Source of the DNA: a virus | Strand: one strand, 5' to 3' | IMG/VR virus record: IMGVR_UViG_3300030116_002071 | Coordinates: 999-47,700 of that record | Length of the DNA: 46,702 nt | Part shown: positions 16,069-35,352 of the stretch, one piece after another | Position numbering within the stretch: the first letter of the stretch is position 1 | Layout of the letters: each line of letters begins with the position of its first letter | Translations under genes and position numbers: made by a program | The notes under the pieces: generated by a model | What the model was told of the DNA's origin: nothing | Seen by the model: only the letters and a program-made list of their open reading frames with translations | Databases searched by the model: none

Positions 16069-16773
16069 TTAAAAAGGTTGCAAACCACACATCGATCTAG
16101 GCACACCTAAGCACGGTCTTCCATCAAATTTATTTTTATCTGCACCCTCTGTATTTTCATCGTTGTAATGAAAAAAAACCTGACCACAAAGATTACCAGC
16201 AAACCTCTCTCGCCAATGTTCACATAAGTGTCCTTTATATATCATCATATCTCCAGGTTTTAAAATTATTTTAACACCTTCTGTATTACCTTCTTGATAA
16301 ACCATCATATCTTCTAATTTACCTTCATTATGTATTTTGACATTTTCTTTTTTTATGTAACTACCAACTTTGGGATCTGGCTCTATATATATAGCCCATT
16401 CATCTCCTCCTAAATTCATAGTGGTTGATATTTCACAACTAAATCTATCTTTATGTCGTTCTAATATATTACCTTTTACATATAATCTTGCATAAGAATA
16501 TGTAGGTAATATTTTTTTATTTATAGTTTTTTCTACCACAGGTGCGCATGACTCTAATAAAGTTTCCATAGCTATGTCTCCATAATGAGAATATGAACCT
16601 GGTGCTTGTACATCAAAAAAATAACCCCAATATTCTTTGTCTGTTTTTTTATGTTCCCAAATCCATTTTGCAACCTGTGACTTGTTTTTAAAATAAGTAT
16701 AAACAAATTCACATATTTTACTGTCAACAACCTCTCTAATGACTACATAATTATTTTTATCAAAGCTCAACAT
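16069..16773 (-). CDS. 2-oxoglutarate/Fe(II) dioxygenase-like protein
   Basis: 234 residues with His107-Lys-Asp109 and distal His186 (GHLCEHW), the HxD...H iron-binding triad of the double-stranded beta-helix oxygenases. GDEWAIYIEP and KPGDMMIYKGH are typical strands. The 2OG-binding Arg is not obvious. The substrate is unknown. Start overlaps the exonuclease stop by 14 nt. It lies within the DNA metabolism block, so a nucleic-acid substrate is conceivable but not shown. Confidence 0.82.
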   Translation of the reverse strand: MLSFDKNNYVVIREVVDSKICEFVYTYFKNKSQVAKWIWEHKKTDKEYWGYFFDVQAPGSYSHYGDIAMETLLESCAPVVEKTINKKILPTYSYARLYVKGNILERHKDRFSCEISTTMNLGGDEWAIYIEPDPKVGSYIKKENVKIHNEGKLEDMMVYQEGNTEGVKIILKPGDMMIYKGHLCEHWRERFAGNLCGQVFFHYNDENTEGADKNKFDGRPCLGVPRSMCGLQPF

Positions 16774-18191: not shown

Positions 18192-18650
18192 CTAATTATT
18201 TTTTTTAAGTAACTTTTTACCTTCTGGAGTCATTCTGCTCACTAAGGTGTTAAAGCCTTTCTTAGACATTAAACCAGATTGCATTAGTCTGTTAGCTACA
18301 TTAATATCATTTTTGCTAAACTTACTCATTTTTGTTGCTCTATCTCCAGTAATAGCTCTTCCAACTGTACCAACTTTTTTCTTAGCAATAACTTTATTAG
18401 GTCTTCTATCTCCAGTGATAGCTATTCCCACTCTAGCTTTCATCATTTTAGTGCCACCCTTAGAGTAGCCTTTAGTCATCATTTTACCGCCCATAGCAGT
18501 TTTGATACCACCTCTTCGCATACCCTTGGTCATCATTTTACCCTTCATAGCAGTTTTAACGCCACCTTTACGCATGCCTTTAGCCATTTTACCTTTCATG
18601 GCTTTCATCATTTTCATGCCACCTTTAGAATATCCTTTAGTTTTTTTCAT
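18192..18650 (-). CDS. Lys/Met/Gly-rich repeat protein, 152 aa
   Basis: AAAGGAG before ATG 18650. Residues 1-75 consist of degenerate repeats of KGYSKGGTKMMKA and KGMRKGGVKTAMKGK type; a second pair of AITGDR units follows. The C-terminal part (SKNDINVANRLMQSG...TPEGKKLLKK) is a normal short helical domain. KGG-type repeats also occur at the ends of other virion-module proteins here. Probably binds DNA or the membrane by charge; no function is known. Confidence 0.75.
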   Translation of the reverse strand: MKKTKGYSKGGMKMMKAMKGKMAKGMRKGGVKTAMKGKMMTKGMRRGGIKTAMGGKMMTKGYSKGGTKMMKARVGIAITGDRRPNKVIAKKKVGTVGRAITGDRATKMSKFSKNDINVANRLMQSGLMSKKGFNTLVSRMTPEGKKLLKKNN

Positions 18651-26738: not shown

Positions 26739-27524
26739 CTACTCTGTATTTTCTTGTTTATCAAGTCCGGTAGATATCATTTCATCTAGTAATCTTCCGG
26801 TATACTGATACTCTCCTACATGCGTAATATATTCTGTAATCAACGCATGACACTTGCCTCCTGTTTCACGCCATAATTTAGAAAAAGCAAAGTCCTCTCC
26901 ATAATACCTTTTATCTTCTTCATCATAAAAAGTATCAAAAAAATTATACAAATGTGGTGTAGTTGTAGTTTTGCCGTCAATAACAGTTTCTTGTTTAATG
27001 GTTCTTGTAGGATAGGCTTGTATCATTTTATCAAATACTTGTCTTTGCAATAACATACATCCTGTAGGAGCATAATTTAACTCGATCATCTCATCAGTCA
27101 TAGTTACATCGTGTTCTTCATCTTTAATTTTAACAGGAAATTTATTACCACTTGTGTTTCGTTGTAATTGATTCATACTGGTTATTACTCCTGTTTTATC
27201 AAATACCTTATCCCAGTTTATTAATTTCATAGGATAAGGTATGCTACACATTTCTACATTTTTATCTAACATTTTAAATATAGATTGTGGATAAAATAAA
27301 ATATCGCTGTCAACAAATAGTAAGTGCGTATAATCTGTATTTAAAAAATGAGCAACACAAGTGTTTCGACCTTGTGTTACTAAAGAGCTTTTCATCATGT
27401 CTAATGTGAATTCTACATTTCTCTTGTAACACTCTGCTTGCAAACGAATTATAGATTGCATGTAATGAATAGAAACATCACTATGTACAGGGGTAGCTAC
27501 GTATAATTTAATTTTTTCTTTCAT
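26739..27524 (-). CDS. GT-A type glycosyltransferase
   Basis: 261 residues from ATG 27524 (AAGGTG site). It starts KIKLYVATPVHSDVSIHY, has VTQGRNTCVAHFL and the metal-binding DxD-type motif FVDSDILF, as in GT-A sugar transferases acting on nucleotide sugars. The C-terminal part has YYGEDFAFSKLWRETGG, as in the acceptor side. Last gene of the cassette 26739-30182; overlaps the GT4 gene. The acceptor could be a virion or host molecule. Confidence 0.82.
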   Translation of the reverse strand: MKEKIKLYVATPVHSDVSIHYMQSIIRLQAECYKRNVEFTLDMMKSSLVTQGRNTCVAHFLNTDYTHLLFVDSDILFYPQSIFKMLDKNVEMCSIPYPMKLINWDKVFDKTGVITSMNQLQRNTSGNKFPVKIKDEEHDVTMTDEMIELNYAPTGCMLLQRQVFDKMIQAYPTRTIKQETVIDGKTTTTPHLYNFFDTFYDEEDKRYYGEDFAFSKLWRETGGKCHALITEYITHVGEYQYTGRLLDEMISTGLDKQENTE

Positions 27525-28440
27525 GCAACACACCTTGCAAAAAGTTTGTCCAATCTACTTTTCTTTTCTCCCAGCTATAAAATTTTTTTACAAATTTTTG
27601 TTGTTCTTGTAAGTGTTCAAAAACTTCCTGTGAGTCTAAAGTTTGAATTGCTTTTCGTATAGCAGCAGCAAACTTAGCTGCTAATCTTTTTGTATCTTTT
27701 TCGTACGTTACATACAACGGATACTCTGAACATGTTTCGTATAAGGCACCATAGTTTGTAACGATACAATACAATCCAGCTGCCATAGCTTCAAGAGCAG
27801 CATTACAACTTGTTTCTTCCCATGTGCTAGGGTATGCAAACATGTGATAACGATATATAAATTTTTGTATAAAAGAGTGTTCTTTGTATCCTATGTAATT
27901 TACATTTTCTAATCTTCTAGCCTGTTCATATAAGGGTTCGTATTTTTCTTCATTTTGTTTTTCAAAATTTTCGCCATAGATTTTACAACTACTGTATATA
28001 TCTACATGAACATTACAATCTCGTAATAAACTCATTGCTCCCAGTAATACATTTAAACCTCTCCACGGTGTAACATGAAATAACATACGAACCATATTAC
28101 CTGTCTTATAAGGTGTAACCACAGGAAAATTATTTACTGCATTTTTTATAACATGACATTTGTGTGTTGGTAGATCAAATCTATATCTGTATTTTTCATA
28201 ATTCCAATGACTGTTAAAAATATACCAATCATATTTATCGTGGTTAGTTTTATCTTCAAACCAAGGATAAATGTTAGGTTGATCGTAACTATTTTTTTGC
28301 CACAGTATATTTATTTTATTTTTGTCTAATTCTACTTTGCCCGGTATAGATGTGCATATTTGAAAATTATCTAATAACTTATCATCAACATAATGTGATA
28401 AGAACCGATGCTGGATTTCTGTACCACCTAAAGGATTCAT
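27508..28440 (-). CDS. Group 1 (GT4-like) glycosyltransferase
   Basis: 310 residues. The N-terminal MNPLGGTEIQHRF and C-terminal PSTWEETSCNAALEAMAAG with CIVTNYGALYE form the GT4 retaining-transferase signature (Glu-x7-Glu). Both Rossmann halves are recognisable; the size is slightly short for GT4 (typically 350-400). It overlaps both the SET gene and the GT-A gene, so the three are translated together. Confidence 0.88.
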   Translation of the reverse strand: MNPLGGTEIQHRFLSHYVDDKLLDNFQICTSIPGKVELDKNKINILWQKNSYDQPNIYPWFEDKTNHDKYDWYIFNSHWNYEKYRYRFDLPTHKCHVIKNAVNNFPVVTPYKTGNMVRMLFHVTPWRGLNVLLGAMSLLRDCNVHVDIYSSCKIYGENFEKQNEEKYEPLYEQARRLENVNYIGYKEHSFIQKFIYRYHMFAYPSTWEETSCNAALEAMAAGLYCIVTNYGALYETCSEYPLYVTYEKDTKRLAAKFAAAIRKAIQTLDSQEVFEHLQEQQKFVKKFYSWEKRKVDWTNFLQGVLHERKN

Positions 28441-28754
28441 GATCCATATTCCAAAAATAATTCTTGACCCTTTTTTATTTTTTTAATTGTCACCACTTTA
28501 TAGACTAAATAATCATCCCAATCTAAATCAATAAATAGCCTACAATTAGGAAAATCACTATGATTTAAAAACCCACCCATAGGAGTCCTTACGTAGCCAT
28601 GTATAATAGGTATTTTAATATGACTCATTCCTAAATCATATCTTTTAGGTATATCACATTTTGCAAAAATACCATGACCGTGAGTTGAACTAACTCCAAC
28701 AGTTAATTCTTCTGGTAATGGATTGTAATAAAATCTATCGTATTTAATTTTCAT
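28437..28754 (-). CDS. SET-domain protein, probable protein lysine methyltransferase
   Basis: 105 residues from ATG 28754; the frame extends to a TTG 15 nt upstream. Motifs: HGHGIFAKCDIP (SAM-binding strand), GGFLNHSDFPNC (the NHS...C motif) and KKGQELFLEYGS (catalytic Tyr). The protein is a minimal SET domain with no pre-SET or post-SET Cys cluster. It would methylate lysine using SAM. The start overlaps the preceding stop by 11 nt. Confidence 0.85.
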   Translation of the reverse strand: MKIKYDRFYYNPLPEELTVGVSSTHGHGIFAKCDIPKRYDLGMSHIKIPIIHGYVRTPMGGFLNHSDFPNCRLFIDLDWDDYLVYKVVTIKKIKKGQELFLEYGS

Positions 28755-28944
28755 CTTTAGTTTTGCCAACTAAAGACAATGCTTCTTCTGGAACAATTAT
28801 TTTAACATCACATGCTATGTCTTCTTGTTTTGTGTCTGTATTAGGATTGTTTACATCATGATCTGCATCAGCTTTCGTTGCATAAACCATGTTTGTTTTT
28901 TTATTTCTGTAAGTTTCTTGTGCTTCGCATTTAATTCTTTTCAT
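28744..28944 (-). CDS. Small companion protein of the oxygenase cassette, 66 aa
   Basis: Start chosen at ATG 28944; the frame is open 15 codons upstream, but that part overlaps the previous gene. It reads KCEAQETYRNKKTNMVYATK, then NPNTDTKQEDI and DVKIIVPEEAL; I have the impression that such proteins occur with phage oxygenases, but I cannot name a family. It is small, acidic and without catalytic motif. Perhaps a partner subunit. Confidence 0.6.
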   Translation of the reverse strand: MKRIKCEAQETYRNKKTNMVYATKADADHDVNNPNTDTKQEDIACDVKIIVPEEALSLVGKTKDEN

Positions 28945-28966
28945 CAATAAAATATCCCATATTAGT

Positions 28967-29653
28967 TTACTTATTGCAAGAAATATCAATCCACTTTCTA
29001 TCTTGTTTATTATCTCCTAAATATGATATAGGTATGCTTAAAGATAATCTTTTTGATAATGATGTCGCTTGATGTACTATGTGTTTAGGTATAAAAATAA
29101 TATCACCTGGTTTCATCACAACATCAATTATTGGTTTTTCTTTTGTTTGTATTTTACTAGGTCCTTCATTGCATTCTATATCCCATACTTTAAAATTAGT
29201 TTGACCCTCTACTTGAATAATAATATTATCAGCTTTATCCCAGTGTTTACTCAAACTTGTGCCTTGTTCATTTTTAAAAAGATCAAAGTATATATGTACA
29301 TCAACTTCTCCATTAGTTTCTTTTTCTATGTGATCACATAATGTGTTTATTTTTTTATTGGCTCTAGACATATCTGAAATCCAACATACGCCCTGTTTAA
29401 TAACCGGTATAATACATTGTGCGGGTATAGACCGAACATCACTCAACCATGCAGAGGGTTGCCATTTTAAATTTTCTGTATTACCAGTGGTATGAAACCT
29501 ATCAACATTTGTTATAGGTCTAATATTTATAAGCGATTCTAATTCTTTCCAACTGTATAAATTAGTGCATATTTTTGTATCATAATTTGCTTTTTTTTTA
29601 TTTATGCAATTTAATATTTTATGTAAGCCAAGAGACAATACTGTACCTTTCAC
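28967..29653 (-). CDS. JmjC/cupin-type Fe(II)/2OG oxygenase
   Basis: Start GTG 29653 (AAAAGG upstream); TTG 29638, preceded by AAAGG, is also possible. INIRPITNVDRFH near residue 43, then His137-Trp-Asp139 and distal His194 with KPGDIIFIPKHIVH, as in cupin/JmjC hydroxylases acting on proteins or ribosomal proteins. It overlaps the preceding oxygenase gene, so both are probably made together. Confidence 0.82.
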   Translation of the reverse strand: MKGTVLSLGLHKILNCINKKKANYDTKICTNLYSWKELESLINIRPITNVDRFHTTGNTENLKWQPSAWLSDVRSIPAQCIIPVIKQGVCWISDMSRANKKINTLCDHIEKETNGEVDVHIYFDLFKNEQGTSLSKHWDKADNIIIQVEGQTNFKVWDIECNEGPSKIQTKEKPIIDVVMKPGDIIFIPKHIVHQATSLSKRLSLSIPISYLGDNKQDRKWIDISCNK

Positions 29654-30182
29654 CTTTTGTAACAGGCATTACTTGATGCGGATATAAAAAATTACTTGGA
29701 AAAATAATCATATCTCCTGTTTTAAGAGTTGGTTTAGAATATGCCATATCAGTGTATGGATTAAAAAATATTAAATCGCCTCCTTCATATTCCTCATTAA
29801 TATTAATAATTATTGATAATGTTCTATTTAAGGTATTAGAAGCATCTACGTGCTTGAGGTAAAAGTTATTTTTTTGATACTTTAATAAATTTATTTCATT
29901 TAAATGTAAATTACCCATAAATTTAAATTGTTGTAAATATTTTTGAACGCCTTTTCGTATACCGTTTTCTACTATTTTATAATACGGAGGAGCTCCATAA
30001 TCATCATTGTTTAACCAATGTGACAAAACATCTCTTATCTTTGTATCCGTTTCTGGTTTATTGTTTTTACCCATAACTTCTGCTTTAATCTTACATTTTT
30101 CATCCATGTAAGAAATCATTTTTTTGCAATCTTCTTGTGAAATTATTTGTTCTAATTTAAAGATAGCTTGTTGAAGCAACAT
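29619..30182 (-). CDS. Prolyl-4-hydroxylase-like 2OG-Fe(II) oxygenase
   Basis: 187 residues. Iron ligands His111-x-Asp113 and His169 (YPHQV), and Arg179 10 residues after it (KGERYSIVSWL) for 2OG. The strand GGDLIFFNP is typical of P4H-like enzymes. A complete catalytic set is present, so the enzyme should be active. The ATG has no Shine-Dalgarno and lies 6 nt after a candidate -10, suggesting a leaderless mRNA that starts the six-gene modification cassette. Confidence 0.88.
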   Translation of the reverse strand: MLLQQAIFKLEQIISQEDCKKMISYMDEKCKIKAEVMGKNNKPETDTKIRDVLSHWLNNDDYGAPPYYKIVENGIRKGVQKYLQQFKFMGNLHLNEINLLKYQKNNFYLKHVDASNTLNRTLSIIININEEYEGGDLIFFNPYTDMAYSKPTLKTGDMIIFPSNFLYPHQVMPVTKGERYSIVSWLT

Positions 30183-30188
30183 CTTATT

Positions 30189-30216
30189 AATATACTAATA
30201 TCACCCATTTTGTAAA
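30189..30216 (-). promoter_or_regulatory. Candidate promoter of the modification cassette (leaderless)
   Basis: Minus strand: TTTACA, 16 nt, TATATT, 6 nt (AATAAG), ATG. It overlaps the end of the upstream virion gene. It has the 16-nt spacing and short gap seen at 366 and 35359. Confidence 0.5.
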
Positions 30217-30542
30217 GAGCGATCTACTAAAGCATAAGAGACTATGCCTTGTATTTTACCAGCTGTACCAGCGGTAAGTTTAAGTACATCCCCTTCCTCT
30301 AATACTAAAGTTTGTGATATTACTTGTCTAGTAGTATTAGTTGCAATGGCTGCTTTATCTATTCTAAAAGTTGCAGTAGCACTTGTATCAGTGACTTCAG
30401 TAGTAAGATCAACATCGCCAGAATGATTATTATGTGCTTGTATTTGTTTTATTAAACATCTGCCCGATACTGGTGCGGTCAACACAGTGGTTTGACTTGT
30501 GTCTGATAAATTAAAGCCTGCGTTTTTGTATTGTATAGTCAT
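30201..30542 (-). CDS. Small virion-type beta protein, 113 aa
   Basis: ATG 30542 overlaps the previous stop (ATGA). Thr/Val-rich beta sequence (TTVLTAPVSGRCLIKQIQAH, VLEEGDVLKLTAGTAG) as in head-decoration or tail accessory proteins. A related style is seen at 43466-43774. Exact role unknown. Confidence 0.65.
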   Translation of the reverse strand: MTIQYKNAGFNLSDTSQTTVLTAPVSGRCLIKQIQAHNNHSGDVDLTTEVTDTSATATFRIDKAAIATNTTRQVISQTLVLEEGDVLKLTAGTAGKIQGIVSYALVDRSLQNG

Positions 30543-30703
30543 GATATAAACCAATTAAAAGTTTGTTGCTCAGCTTTTAAATCCTCTTGATATGAAAAAT
30601 TTAATTTTTGTATAATTTGAGTCAAAGCTAAATTTATTAATCTTTGGTTTTCAATATTATATTCTTCTTTTGGTTCTGGAATAAATGTATTTATTTTAGC
30701 CAA
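30539..30703 (-). CDS. Small hypothetical protein with TTG start, 54 aa
   Basis: TTG 30703 is preceded by AGAGGA at 7-nt spacing and overlaps the end of the preceding basic gene; the stop overlaps the next start as ATGA. Sequence FIPEPKEEYNIENQRLINLA then FSYQEDLKAEQQTFNWF, helical and acidic, like small proteins found between virion genes in marine podoviruses. It fills the otherwise empty stretch 30555-30695. Confidence 0.65.
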   Translation of the reverse strand: MAKINTFIPEPKEEYNIENQRLINLALTQIIQKLNFSYQEDLKAEQQTFNWFIS

Positions 30704-30980
30704 TTTTTTTCCTCTGTTTTCTTATAGCCTCTTTGCCTGCCTTTGCTATATTTACTACTTGCGTTTTACCCATAACTTTAGCACGTTGTTCCATCACTGT
30801 TAAGATCTGTATTTTTCTAGCAAAAGGCTTACGTAATTTTTTTACCTTTGCTACTGTAGCTCTTGCATCAGCAGGAGTAGCAAACTTTATTTTAACTGTA
30901 TCTTTTGGATTTTCATCCGTGTATAATCTTCTATCACTACCCTTAGGTTTTTTTCCTGTTCCTTTTTTTGGATCTGGCAC
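30696..30980 (-). CDS. Basic conserved phage protein, 94 aa, GTG start
   Basis: GTG 30980 with AAGGAG upstream. The string KKPKGSDRRLYTDENPKDTV followed by KFATPADARATVAKVKKLRKP and QILTVMEQRAKVMGK is a recurrent marine-phage pattern of unknown function. Strongly basic. One of three short basic proteins in a row. Confidence 0.75.
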   Translation of the reverse strand: MPDPKKGTGKKPKGSDRRLYTDENPKDTVKIKFATPADARATVAKVKKLRKPFARKIQILTVMEQRAKVMGKTQVVNIAKAGKEAIRKQRKKIG

Positions 30981-31391: not shown

Positions 31392-33563
31392 TTATCGCCT
31401 GCCGTCTTGTTGAACATCAGCTTTAAAAGTTCCATATCTCCAACTTTCGTTTGTAGTAATATTTTCTATTTTTAAATTTGCTGCTCTACCTCTTGCTCTT
31501 GTATCTATTTTTTGAGTTGAATTAGAAACAGTAAACGGACCTAAGCTACTACTTGCTTCAGTATCACTAGGAAAATCTTTTAAATTAATAGTTACTTTAG
31601 CATTGCCTGTGAGAGCTCTAAAGTCTGGTATAAATCTTCTAACTTTAATAAAAAACTCACCTGTAGTTCCTGCCTCTTTTACTTCAAAATCACCACTTTG
31701 TATACTGCCGACTATAGCTGTAATTGCAGAAGTATTTACTTGATTATTACCTTTTTCATGAGCATACAGTGTAGAGGCTCCGTTAATATTTGTTACTCCT
31801 TGTATGACAGGAAAAGTTGGTACACCTGTTTCTACAAAATCCGTAGCATATGGGTTGTCGTATACAGTTTTATCATAATAAGTAGTTCTGGCTAGTGATC
31901 CTATTGACCAAACGTTTTCTAAATAATTAAAAGTAACTACTCTATCTATTTGTGTAGATCCAGCTTTTGGATAAAACCAATTAATTTCACCAAAAAGAGA
32001 ATTATAACCAGCAAATATTACATCTGAGGCATCAAAATTTAAACCTAAATCTCCATCATCAATAGTAGTAAAAACAAAATCTTCAACAGAACATGGTATT
32101 TTTTTTACAGTACCATCGTACAAGTAAAACCCACCAGCTTGTCCCATCCAATACACCACACCATTAACAGCTACTACACCATGCTGAGATATAAGTCCAC
32201 AATTTGCACCTGCTTGTTCAATACCAAAAGTAAAAGGCGGACCTATAAACCTCATACTGTAAGCTGCTGTGTCAGTAAGAATTAAATTATATGACCCAGC
32301 GTTGACTCCACCTACTATTTTAGCTCCATTATCTATTCTAAAAGTTCCTGCCGTGTTTATAGATGTTGGTGCATAATCAGTTAAACTCTCTTGATCTGAA
32401 AATCTTATAAACATTTTATCTTGTGTGCCACTAGCTATTGTTGGTTCTGTGCCTAAATGAATTAGATGTCTATCTCTATCAGATACTAAAGTCATAACAG
32501 ATTTAGTAGGTGCTCCTGATATTACAGCTGCTCTTGTTCCTAAAGCATTTGATGCTGAAGGGTCCCACGAAAAAGATTTATTATTACGTACTGTGCCTAT
32601 AAGAATTTGTCCAAAATTATCTAAAGACCAATTACCAGGTTCTAATATTACAGTAGAATCATCTGTTGCTTCACCCCAACCAAAATACGTAGATGCTTCA
32701 ATAACTGTTGCTCCATCACTGTGTGCTGCGGTTGCTGTACCAGAAGCTCCTCTACTAATACCTGTTAAATTAGATCCACTTATGCCTGTGTACGTTATTA
32801 GTTCACTATCAACTAAAATAATACCACCTGTGGCTGAAAAGTTTGCAGTGGAGTCAAGAGTAATAGTAGTTCCTGAACCACCTGTACCAGCACTATCGTT
32901 TAACAAAGCTCCGTCTAAAGTATTGGATGCTATAGGAAAAGTTTCTCCACCCCATCTGCCAGTACCAAAACCATATCCACTTACTTGACCTGCCTCACCT
33001 ACTCTAAAATAAGGAGTAACTGTAACACTTCCAGCTGCACTCATACCAGTACCAGACTCATTACTAGGCATAGTCACTGTAAAAGAATCAGATAATGCAG
33101 TTATCACTTGAAATGTGTTATTAGTAAAATTAGCAGTGGTAAAACCTGTAGCACCACCACCTGGTAAAGTAACACTACTAAATAAAAATAAATCTCCCTC
33201 TACTAAACCATGTGCTGCTTTGTTTACTGTAACTGTAGCTGATCCATTAGATGAAGTAAAAGTACAAGAAGTAAGAGCTGTATCAAGAGGACTTATATCA
33301 TAAAATGCCCCATCATAATAAACAAATAAACCTTTGTTAGTGCCTAAAGCAATATATCTTCTACCTAAAGTATCAGCCCAGATATGAGATTCTCTAGTTA
33401 CACCAACTAAGGTATCTGTAGTTGTTTGTTCCCATCCACCTATTTTTTCCGGATAGCCATAACGAAATCTTACATTATCGCAATCAATCCATTTACCCTC
33501 TGCTCCTGTTGGTGTTACTTGTTTGTTTATTCCAGGTGCTATTTTAACGTCAGTTAAAGGCAT
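31392..33563 (-). CDS. Large tail protein, podovirus tail-tube/stabilisation type
   Basis: 723 residues. Starts MPLTDVKIAPGINKQVTPTG, with IDCDNVRFRYGYPEKIGGWE, typical of a tail-tube or DNA-stabilisation protein of marine podoviruses. The body is almost pure beta strand with Ser/Thr/Gly repeats; near the middle there are Ig-like loops (TVNKAAHGLVEGDLFLFSSV). No catalytic motif. It probably forms part of the tail that channels DNA. Confidence 0.75.
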   Translation of the reverse strand: MPLTDVKIAPGINKQVTPTGAEGKWIDCDNVRFRYGYPEKIGGWEQTTTDTLVGVTRESHIWADTLGRRYIALGTNKGLFVYYDGAFYDISPLDTALTSCTFTSSNGSATVTVNKAAHGLVEGDLFLFSSVTLPGGGATGFTTANFTNNTFQVITALSDSFTVTMPSNESGTGMSAAGSVTVTPYFRVGEAGQVSGYGFGTGRWGGETFPIASNTLDGALLNDSAGTGGSGTTITLDSTANFSATGGIILVDSELITYTGISGSNLTGISRGASGTATAAHSDGATVIEASTYFGWGEATDDSTVILEPGNWSLDNFGQILIGTVRNNKSFSWDPSASNALGTRAAVISGAPTKSVMTLVSDRDRHLIHLGTEPTIASGTQDKMFIRFSDQESLTDYAPTSINTAGTFRIDNGAKIVGGVNAGSYNLILTDTAAYSMRFIGPPFTFGIEQAGANCGLISQHGVVAVNGVVYWMGQAGGFYLYDGTVKKIPCSVEDFVFTTIDDGDLGLNFDASDVIFAGYNSLFGEINWFYPKAGSTQIDRVVTFNYLENVWSIGSLARTTYYDKTVYDNPYATDFVETGVPTFPVIQGVTNINGASTLYAHEKGNNQVNTSAITAIVGSIQSGDFEVKEAGTTGEFFIKVRRFIPDFRALTGNAKVTINLKDFPSDTEASSSLGPFTVSNSTQKIDTRARGRAANLKIENITTNESWRYGTFKADVQQDGRR

Positions 33564-34169: not shown

Positions 34170-34739
34170 TTAACTATATGGAGATTGTAACACATAAGGA
34201 GTGCTTGACGCTAGACTGTAATCGATAGCCCAACGTTTTTTTTCACAATAAATATCTCCAGCTTTGTGAGGTATTCTTGGATTAAAAACATAAAAAGAAC
34301 CAGGTGGAGCATAGTAATCTTTACCATCCCAGTGAAAACCACCACCCCAGTCTTCTTTCCAGTCTGGCTCTAGTAAACCCAAAACTTTTAAAACGTTCAT
34401 ATCTTCTGGTAGATCATGCCTATGATCTGTATGCATATTGTTTTCAGTATATTTATCTCTCACACCAATACCACAAAAAAACACTGGTAACTTAAATAAA
34501 TTACATTTTTGTTGTATCATAGATAATATAGACATAGCATAACCTGCTCCTATAGCTTTATCTGCTGTGGGAGGCACATCATTTATCAAATTTATTTTTA
34601 TAAATCTTTTATCTGGAGAATGATTAATTGGATATTGCATATTCCAACATTCAGCATCTAAAGACCATTGTTTTAAATCTTGAAGTAAATGTAAAGGAAC
34701 TGCATCTTTAACTATTGTTAGCTTGTGCTTCATCTTCAT
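34170..34739 (-). CDS. 2OG-Fe(II) oxygenase, 189 aa
   Basis: HxD motif His103-Thr-Asp105 (NMHTDHRHD), distal His158 (RIPHKAGD) and Lys168/Arg169 beyond it. GGGFHWDGKDYYAPPGSFYVF is the central strand region (a typical GG...P...G pattern). Either of two ATGs (34739 or 34733) can be used; AGGA precedes the second. It overlaps the end of the preceding oxygenase gene. The substrate is unknown; it sits among fibre genes. Confidence 0.83.
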   Translation of the reverse strand: MKMKHKLTIVKDAVPLHLLQDLKQWSLDAECWNMQYPINHSPDKRFIKINLINDVPPTADKAIGAGYAMSILSMIQQKCNLFKLPVFFCGIGVRDKYTENNMHTDHRHDLPEDMNVLKVLGLLEPDWKEDWGGGFHWDGKDYYAPPGSFYVFNPRIPHKAGDIYCEKKRWAIDYSLASSTPYVLQSPYS

Positions 34740-35352
34740 CCTGTCTTTCTACATTAAAATTAGCAGAAATAGATACTCTCTCTTTGTTAGACCTATTTAC
34801 AGTAACAGAATGTGGAACGTGTGCAGGAAAAATGACCACACTATCTGTTCTAGGTTCATGTTGATATTTTGTTCTAGCAAACAAAGTATCGGCTAATAAG
34901 GGAGTAGAATAAAATCTTTGATATGACATTACTTGATCTACATTATCTAGTATCAAGAAACCACTATTTTCAGGCACTTCTAAATATACAGTGGCAGTAA
35001 AATCAGTTTGTGGATGTATGTGTGTAATATTCCAATTTTCAGGTCCATTTATATTAGCCCACACTGCTGTACAATACAATTTAAATTTACCAGGTCCATA
35101 TGCTTGTATAGCATCACCAACGTCTGCTGATAGTTGATTTAAAAATTTTTCTACAAGAGAATCTTTTATTCTAACAAAATCTTTAGATTGGTAACCACCA
35201 ACATTACTTATCTTTCTGCCACCAAGATTCTTTGTCCATTCGATTAATTTATCTTTATCTTTGAAAATAAAATCTTTTTCAAATATTGGAATGCCAAACA
35301 TTCCTGTAATTTTTTTATTATCTTTATTTTCGGCAGCTTTATTTTCATCCAT
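34708..35352 (-). CDS. Putative 2OG-Fe(II) oxygenase, HxH variant
   Basis: 214 residues. FGIPIFEKDF at the N-terminus and ITHIHPQTDFTATVYLEVP, with IFPAHVPHSVTVN and ERVSISANFN, match phage and cyanobacterial oxygenases of the TIGR02466 type. Ligand candidates are His111, His178 or His181, and Arg192; the expected Asp at the HxD position is His113, so activity should be tested. The ATG lacks a Shine-Dalgarno and follows a candidate -10 by 6 nt. Confidence 0.75.
   Translation of the reverse strand: MDENKAAENKDNKKITGMFGIPIFEKDFIFKDKDKLIEWTKNLGGRKISNVGGYQSKDFVRIKDSLVEKFLNQLSADVGDAIQAYGPGKFKLYCTAVWANINGPENWNITHIHPQTDFTATVYLEVPENSGFLILDNVDQVMSYQRFYSTPLLADTLFARTKYQHEPRTDSVVIFPAHVPHSVTVNRSNKERVSISANFNVERQDEDEAQANNS

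What the first reader, a model, noticed from the sequence alone, without database searches (positions are those of the whole stretch)
26739..30216. Self-contained hydroxylase-SET-glycosyltransferase cassette inside the virion module
Six co-oriented, mostly overlapping genes encode a P4H-like oxygenase with complete HxD..H..R, a JmjC/cupin oxygenase, a small companion, a minimal SET methyltransferase, a GT4 and a GT-A glycosyltransferase, with a candidate promoter at 30189-30216. Both flanks are virion-type genes. In established pathways (collagen-type hydroxylysine glycosylation, Skp1 prolyl hydroxylation then glycosylation) hydroxylation creates the acceptor for a sugar. A phage-encoded hydroxylation-plus-sugar and methyl modification pathway for fibres, capsid or host surface is a new hypothesis.
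Basis: partly seen in the sequence, partly recalled or inferred. Interest (0 to 1): 0.75.

Follow-up and report, generated by a model that had tools for sequence, protein, structure and literature searches.

The report
Phage sugar-transferase pair with swapped add-ons
A marine phage of the HTVC023P (SAR11-phage) type carries, next to its tail genes, a pair of sugar-transferase genes shared by all its relatives, into which this phage has separately picked up two oxygenase genes and a tiny lysine-methyltransferase gene; it looks like a changeable protein-decoration site, not one fixed pathway.

Summary
The six genes are real, co-oriented and overlapping on the minus strand (30182-26739), with intact catalytic motifs. 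The record is an HTVC023P-type pelagiphage. The claim of a self-contained cassette fails comparison. In 83 distinct relatives the order tail gene - small core protein - GT4 - GT-A is constant, while the rest is accessory: oxygenases lie in the tail gene-GT4 gap in 29 of 83 (at least 13 state changes on the tree), SET in 10 of 83, and this JmjC only in the window. A close relative keeps both glycosyltransferases with no oxygenase or SET detected in a 41-kb (incomplete) record. Oxygenases also crowd another tail-module slot, and in an unrelated T4-like contig they sit between replication genes, so their link to the glycosyltransferases is not specific. The P4H model matches protein prolyl hydroxylases (Z about 20). 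The GT-A model matches STIV A197 and the accessory domain of lysyl hydroxylase LH3 (Z about 17), which keeps a hydroxylate-then-glycosylate reading alive but unproven. Most likely: a late glycosyltransferase pair decorating a phage protein, with independently acquired protein-modifying add-ons. Multiple oxygenases and glycosyltransferases in this phage group are already published.

The parts
29619..30182 (-). P4H-like 2OG-Fe(II) oxygenase, 187 aa, HxD...H...R complete; accessory
   Evidence: PF13640 1.5e-16; invariant H111, D113, H169, R179; AF2 pLDDT 90, nearest solved structures are protein prolyl hydroxylases, Z 20
28967..29653 (-). JmjC_2 (ribosomal-oxygenase-like) protein, 228 aa, non-ATG start overlapping the P4H end; not found at this place in any relative examined
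   Evidence: PF08007 2.7e-16; MINA/NO66/YcfD weak matches; closest named phage relative S-H38 at 37%; the JmjC seed hits only window and S-H38 among the loci then held
28744..28944 (-). Small core protein 'sm', 66 aa, function unknown; directly precedes GT4 (or SET) in relatives
28437..28754 (-). Minimal SET-domain protein, 105 aa (starts ATG 28754, not TTG 28769); accessory, 10 of 83 relatives
   Evidence: PF00856 5.6e-9; invariant GxG, NHS, Y103; distribution
27508..28440 (-). GT4-type glycosyltransferase, 310 aa, core
   Evidence: PF00534 6.3e-14, phrog_2170 5.9e-28; EX7E invariant; beside GT-A in relatives
26739..27524 (-). GT-A fold glycosyltransferase, 261 aa, DSD motif, core
   Evidence: phrog_1574 9.7e-32; AF2 pLDDT 78; VIA-align Z 16.8 STIV A197, 16.7 LH3 residues 293-520, 14.7 COLGALT1
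30201..30554 (-). tail117, syntenic virion-module protein immediately upstream
   Evidence: phrog_1276 5.9e-8; conserved upstream of the site
30696..30980 (-). p94, Lys/Arg-rich small protein, highly conserved; present in all 10 SET-bearing relatives but widespread without SET
31392..33563 (-). Virion structural protein (723 aa) used as anchor and for the tree
   Evidence: phrog_3287 3e-79
34708..35352 (-). Further 2OG oxygenase (2OG-FeII_Oxy_5) at the second oxygenase slot
   Evidence: PF13759 9.6e-16
34170..34739 (-). Probable further 2OG oxygenase
   Evidence: PF13640 0.0042, below Pfam cut-off
16069..16773 (-). Protein of the family called 'ferrochelatase' (phrog_2954) that bears an invariant HxDR...HxR pattern, so probably another 2OG oxygenase

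Best explanation
The stretch is a decoration locus in the tail (late) module of an HTVC023P-type phage. Shown: its constant part is the 66-aa protein plus the GT4 and GT-A genes, always downstream of the same tail-module gene; shown: unrelated oxygenase families, a minimal SET gene and occasional sugar-tailoring genes (carbamoyltransferase, CmcI-like methyltransferase, extra glycosyltransferase) are inserted here in different relatives. Inferred: the two glycosyltransferases, made with the late proteins, build a short glycan on a phage structural protein (tail fibre or a neighbour). Inferred: the P4H is a protein prolyl hydroxylase, the JmjC a peptide or protein hydroxylase and the SET a lysine methyltransferase, each acquired separately and each adding its own mark to phage or host proteins, not serving as steps of one obligatory pathway. 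In this phage the P4H could add acceptor sites for the sugar, but the glycosyltransferases seem able to work without it.
For: Conserved p54-tail117-[inserts]-sm-[SET]-GT4-GTA-p295 order; in 80 GT-A loci GT4 is on the same strand, abutting except where an oxygenase lies between (L307, L318, L332). 83-row tree: oxygenase at the site in 29 rows with at least 13 changes, SET in 10 with 5 changes. Inserts: PF13640, PF13759, PF08007, DUF6445-like, carbamoyltransferase, Gly_transf_sug, CmcI-like. Cultured HTVC023P has tail117-sm-GT4-GTA without P4H/JmjC/SET there. GT4 and GT-A homologues also recur together elsewhere: from the organism counts, 15 of 18 phage records with the GT4 come from groups that also have the GT-A. 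Structures: P4H with protein prolyl hydroxylases Z 20, GT-A with a viral GT and collagen-modifying enzymes. Precedent for phage virion glycosylation: Freeman et al. 2023, as cited in PMC12619734.
Against: No substrate was identified. In T4-like phages (Cr30, DLP6) the GT-A homologue sits beside sliding-clamp genes, and in phiM12 and DLP6 the GT4 sits beside glutaredoxin, which would fit DNA or host targets. Late expression is inferred from gene position only. The downstream neighbours have no assigned function.
Confidence: 0.5

Rival explanations
1. One reading: P4H (and JmjC) hydroxylate a residue of a virion protein and GT4/GT-A then glycosylate that hydroxyl, as in collagen hydroxylysine or Skp1 hydroxyproline glycosylation, with SET methylating the same target.
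For: P4H model nearest protein prolyl hydroxylases, Dictyostelium PHD among them; GT-A model near the LH3 accessory domain, mimivirus R699 and COLGALT1, R699 being a collagen glucosyltransferase (PMC11838735); oxygenases repeatedly inserted beside, and three times between, the GT genes.
Against: 54 of 83 relatives have no oxygenase in the tail117-GT4 gap; G002 (41 kb, incomplete) has the GT pair and no PF13640, PF13759, PF08007, phrog_2954 or SET match. The second slot is full of oxygenases and its tally lists no GT family. The JmjC's 26 other viral loci have no GT4/GT-A hit. The best LH3 match is to its accessory domain, not its catalytic GT domain. No Gly-X-Y repeats.
Confidence: 0.15
2. The oxygenases and SET are independent accessory genes whose targets are host proteins (for example EF-Tu or ribosomal proteins) and lie here only because this is a tolerated insertion slot.
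For: P4H model ties with P. putida P4H in complex with EF-Tu; JmjC is of the ribosomal-oxygenase family; in L366 about eight oxygenases are interspersed among T4-type genes far from any GT4/GT-A; SET occurs beside terminase, helicase and resolvase genes in other phages.
Against: In HTVC023P-type phages the oxygenases found lie mainly in two tail-module slots (27 of 42 larger ORFs in slot 1, 52 of 147 in slot 2, 6 of 42 between them) and none was found by these profiles in the first 25 kb of HTVC023P.
Confidence: 0.25
3. The GT pair glycosylates phage DNA (T4 alpha/beta-GT-like), and the oxygenases supply hydroxylated bases.
For: GT-A and GT4 homologues lie in replication or nucleotide-gene regions of T4-like phages Cr30, DLP6 and phiM12; a carbamoyltransferase at the same locus in one relative; DNA hypermodification genes were reported in some HTVC023P-type genomes (PMC9599517).
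Against: No thymidylate-synthase-type hydroxymethylase in 16 records and none annotated in HTVC023P; the oxygenases are P4H/JmjC types; no TET/JBP match, though that search had no positive control; the locus is in the tail module.
Confidence: 0.1
4. The GT pair alters host envelope glycans (for example to block superinfection).
For: Weak similarity of GT4 to EPS/LPS GT4 enzymes; pelagimyophage GTs have been discussed as LPS-modifying (PMC9599517).
Against: Tight overlap with late tail genes; no acetyltransferase, flippase or membrane anchor was noted in the locus.
Confidence: 0.15

Closest known systems
HTVC023P-type pelagiphages (HTVC023P; Wittmers et al. 2022, PMC9599517)
   Same: Same syntenic tail module with sm-GT4-GTA; several 2OG-Fe(II) oxygenases; 'eight distinct (nonorthologous)' oxygenases and glycosyltransferases already reported for the group
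   Different: HTVC023P has no P4H, JmjC or SET between tail117 and GT4; the GT-pair synteny with swapped oxygenases and the SET gene are not in the passages read
Protein prolyl hydroxylases (P. putida P4H-EF-Tu, PBCV-1 vCPH, PHD2)
   Same: Fold over the whole chain (Z 19-20), HxD...H and a basic 2OG-binding residue
   Different: 15-20% identity; substrate unknown
LH3/PLOD3, COLGALT1, mimivirus R699
   Same: GT-A fold similarity (Z 15-17); in collagen biology such GTs follow a 2OG hydroxylase
   Different: Best match is the LH3/R699 accessory-domain region; 10-13% identity; here the oxygenase is a separate, P4H-type and dispensable gene; no collagen-like target
PBCV-1 vSET
   Same: Stand-alone viral SET protein of about 100-120 aa with the core SET motifs
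   Different: Nearest solved relatives by sequence score are MLL/KMT2 SET domains, vSET lower; no histone target in a bacterium; ends right after the last SET motif
Virion glycosylation of mycobacteriophages (Freeman et al. 2023, as cited in PMC12619734)
   Same: Phage GTs decorating virion proteins is the proposed function
   Different: Not demonstrated here; whether the GT families match was not tested

Membership tests
HTVC023P-type pelagiphage group | Homologous capsid and syntenic tail module | tested here: met
   Capsid 82% to HTVC023P over 99%; same VSP-p54-tail117-sm-GT4-GTA order
Protein prolyl 4-hydroxylase (P4H/PHD) | Double-stranded beta-helix with HxD...H iron triad and a basic 2OG-binding residue | tested here: met
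   H111/D113/H169/R179 invariant in 11 sequences; Z 20.1 to 4iw3 over 175 residues
Protein prolyl 4-hydroxylase (P4H/PHD) | Hydroxylation of a peptidyl proline | not testable with these tools
   Needs an enzyme assay or virion/host proteomics
JmjC_2 / ribosomal oxygenase (ROX) | JmjC domain with HxD...H | tested here: met
   PF08007 2.7e-16; H137, D139, H194
JmjC_2 / ribosomal oxygenase (ROX) | C-terminal dimerisation and winged-helix domains of YcfD/MINA/NO66 | tested here: not met
   Protein ends at residue 228, directly after the JmjC domain (Pfam match 122-209); so a ROX-like domain, not a full ROX
SET-domain lysine methyltransferase | GxG, NHS and C-terminal Tyr motifs | tested here: met
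   Invariant in 10 sequences including P-SSM7 and Kolga
SET-domain lysine methyltransferase | Methyl transfer to a lysine; post-SET or equivalent closing the channel | not testable with these tools
   Protein ends two residues after Y103; assay or co-structure needed
GT4 glycosyltransferase | GT-B C-terminal domain with EX7E | tested here: met
   PF00534 6.3e-14; E209/E217 invariant
Collagen hydroxylysine glycosyltransferase (COLGALT/GT25 or PLOD GT) | Clear family-level similarity to the catalytic GT domain | tested here: inconclusive
   Fold match Z 14.7 to COLGALT1 and 16.7 to the LH3 accessory domain, 10-13% identity; no Pfam match to such a family
Phage DNA hypermodification system | Enzyme making a hydroxymethylated base (thymidylate-synthase-like or TET/JBP) | tested here: inconclusive
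   PF00303 absent in 16 records with positive controls, but most records are incomplete; PF12851 absent without positive control
Six-gene hydroxylase-SET-glycosyltransferase cassette | Gene set inherited as a unit | tested here: not met
   Only sm-GT4-GTA is constant; P4H, SET, JmjC vary independently

The most novel reading that the evidence does not exclude
A bacteriophage stepwise modification system in which a prolyl-hydroxylase-type oxygenase creates hydroxylated acceptor residues on a tail protein and a dedicated GT4/GT-A pair of collagen-glycosyltransferase-like fold adds the sugars, with interchangeable oxygenases changing the decoration from phage to phage.
Probability: 0.12. Interest if true: 0.8.

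Novelty: new variant of a known kind. Interest (0 to 1): 0.45.

Why it matters
[quoted passage not shown] A tail-module locus with a fixed glycosyltransferase pair and interchangeable oxygenase, methyltransferase and carbamoyltransferase genes points to variable chemical decoration of phage proteins. A cultured relative with the core pair exists (HTVC023P on HTCC1062), so the question can be tested directly. The large family of minimal stand-alone SET proteins in marine phages appears unstudied in the papers searched.

Tried and rejected
1) p94 (Lys-rich, 30696-30980) as the SET substrate: p94 is present in all 10 SET-bearing relatives and directly precedes SET in six loci of other phages, but 78 of the 79 newly fetched p94 search loci (L164-L242) show no SET, basic small neighbours of SET are not enriched (13.5% against 23% background), and only 4 independent pairs exist on the tree: kept as a weak lead. 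2) Promoter at 30189-30216: not above shuffles. 3) Collagen-like repeats as target: none in the window. 4) JmjC single-sequence scan of viral contigs found nothing; a two-sequence alignment found 26 loci, none with GT4/GT-A. 6) PADLOC gave only a generic 2OG model for the P4H. 7) Literature: no paper found on phage SET proteins or on hydroxylated phage virion proteins; most subscription journals are not in the library.
Full report
What is there. The window is most of a 47.7-kb virus record whose capsid is 82% identical to Pelagibacter phage HTVC023P. On the minus strand, between a tail-module protein (tail117, 30554-30201) and a 295-aa protein, lie six overlapping or adjacent ORFs. Family searches give a P4H-like 2OG oxygenase, a JmjC_2 protein, a 66-aa protein without a clear family, a 105-aa SET domain, a GT4 and an ORF of phrog_1574. 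The putative promoter is one of 33 promoter-like matches where shuffles give 41.

Catalytic competence. Motifs are invariant among relatives: P4H H111, D113, H169, R179; SET GxG, NHS, Y103; GT-A DSD; GT4 EX7E; JmjC H137, D139, H194. So none looks like a decaying gene.

Conservation of the set. Eighty relatives were fetched with the 723-aa virion protein. The order p54-tail117-sm-GT4-GTA-p295 is constant where visible, while P4H, SET and JmjC are not. A second fetch with the GT-A gave 80 loci, again with GT4 beside it. On a tree of 83 distinct virion proteins, oxygenases in the tail117-GT4 gap occur in 29 rows and need at least 13 changes, SET occurs in 10 rows with 5 changes, and in three rows an oxygenase sits between GT4 and GT-A. 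The window's JmjC has no counterpart of its own type in these relatives. Across whole records, SET is in 10 of 32 and PF13640 over cut-off in 28 of 32. Record G002, a close relative (virion protein 83% identical), has the GT-A but no PF13640, PF13759, PF08007, phrog_2954 or SET match in 41 kb; it is incomplete, so this is strong but not final evidence that the glycosyltransferases do not need an oxygenase.

What fills the gap. Inserts include a second PF13640 type, PF13759 oxygenases, JmjC_2-like proteins, DUF6445-like proteins, a carbamoyltransferase, a Gly_transf_sug protein and a CmcI-like methyltransferase. Oxygenases make up 27 of 42 larger ORFs here, but also 52 of 147 in the TF337-virion protein slot and 6 of 42 between the two slots (Pfam tally of the second slot). 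Hence the association is with the tail module at large; the sugar-tailoring genes were seen only beside the GT pair, but numbers are small.

Outside the group. The GT4 homologue is found in 18 phage records and, by organism, 15 of these come from groups that also carry the GT-A homologue, which supports a functional pair. In Cr30 and DLP6 the GT-A lies beside sliding-clamp genes and in phiM12 and DLP6 the GT4 beside glutaredoxin, so a DNA or host target is possible there. In HTVC023P-type records no thymidylate-synthase-type enzyme was found and HTVC023P has none annotated. The minimal SET family has at least 589 viral relatives in the scan, in many contexts, and 18 matches in bacterial and archaeal assemblies. 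JmjC relatives lie among many other oxygenases, up to about eight in 12.5 kb of T4-type genes in L366, with no GT4 or GT-A.

Structures. The GT-A model (pLDDT 78) is closest to STIV A197 (Z 16.8), LH3 residues 293-520 (Z 16.7), mimivirus R699 (15.1) and COLGALT1 (14.7), against about 13 for other GT-A enzymes. Residues 293-520 of LH3 are the accessory domain (own knowledge); R699 has a catalytic and an accessory domain (PMC11838735), so this is fold kinship, not proof of hydroxylysine chemistry. The P4H model (pLDDT 90) matches Trichoplax PHD, P. putida P4H-EF-Tu, PHD2 and PBCV-1 vCPH at Z 19-20.

Literature. Wittmers et al. 2022 (PMC9599517) reported eight non-orthologous 2OG oxygenases, glycosyltransferases and a 'ferrochelatase' always next to an oxygenase in HTVC023P-type genomes. 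The wide spread of EGLN3-like proteins in marine phages is also published (PMC12774648). Virion glycosylation is known for mycobacteriophages (PMC12619734 citing Freeman et al. 2023).

Judgement. The genes are real and competent; the cassette is not a unit. The best-supported picture is a conserved late glycosyltransferase pair, probably decorating a phage protein, in a slot that collects protein-modifying genes. The hydroxylation-then-glycosylation pathway is possible for this phage but not required by, and not specifically supported by, the comparative evidence.

Noticed in passing
window 16069-16773; L081 19302-19922 (HTVC023P gp67): The family named 'ferrochelatase' (phrog_2954; gp67 of HTVC023P; the 'ferrochelatase' partner of oxygenases in PMC9599517) has an invariant HxDR...PG(D/Q)...HxR pattern, so it is probably itself a 2OG oxygenase and misnamed.
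   Followed up: partly
L366 1-12543: About eight different 2OG oxygenase genes plus a JmjC gene are interspersed, mostly singly, between T4-type genes (helicase-, sigma-factor- and 46/47-like by eye) in 12.5 kb.
   Followed up: partly
window 30696-30980; L164-L242: p94: a Lys/Arg-rich about 94-aa protein, 75-86% identical between marine phages whose other proteins are far less alike, in at least 593 viral loci, no known function.
   Followed up: partly
L089-L163: Stand-alone minimal SET proteins (about 100 aa) are widespread in viral contigs, often directly after the terminase large subunit or beside helicase, resolvase or virion genes.
   Followed up: partly
window 34170-35352: Two more oxygenases, one clear and one probable, in the second slot upstream of the 723-aa virion protein.
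   Followed up: yes
window 18192-18650: Lys/Gly/Met-rich protein made of short repeats (KGGMKMMK..., MTKGMRRGGIKTAM...).
   Followed up: no
relatives, e.g. L031 12637-12795 and L047 8635-8760: A 42-53 aa strongly basic peptide (KKRPGRHKKRLNKHEKR...) lies between tail117 and sm in many relatives and is missing in the window's own subclade.
   Followed up: no
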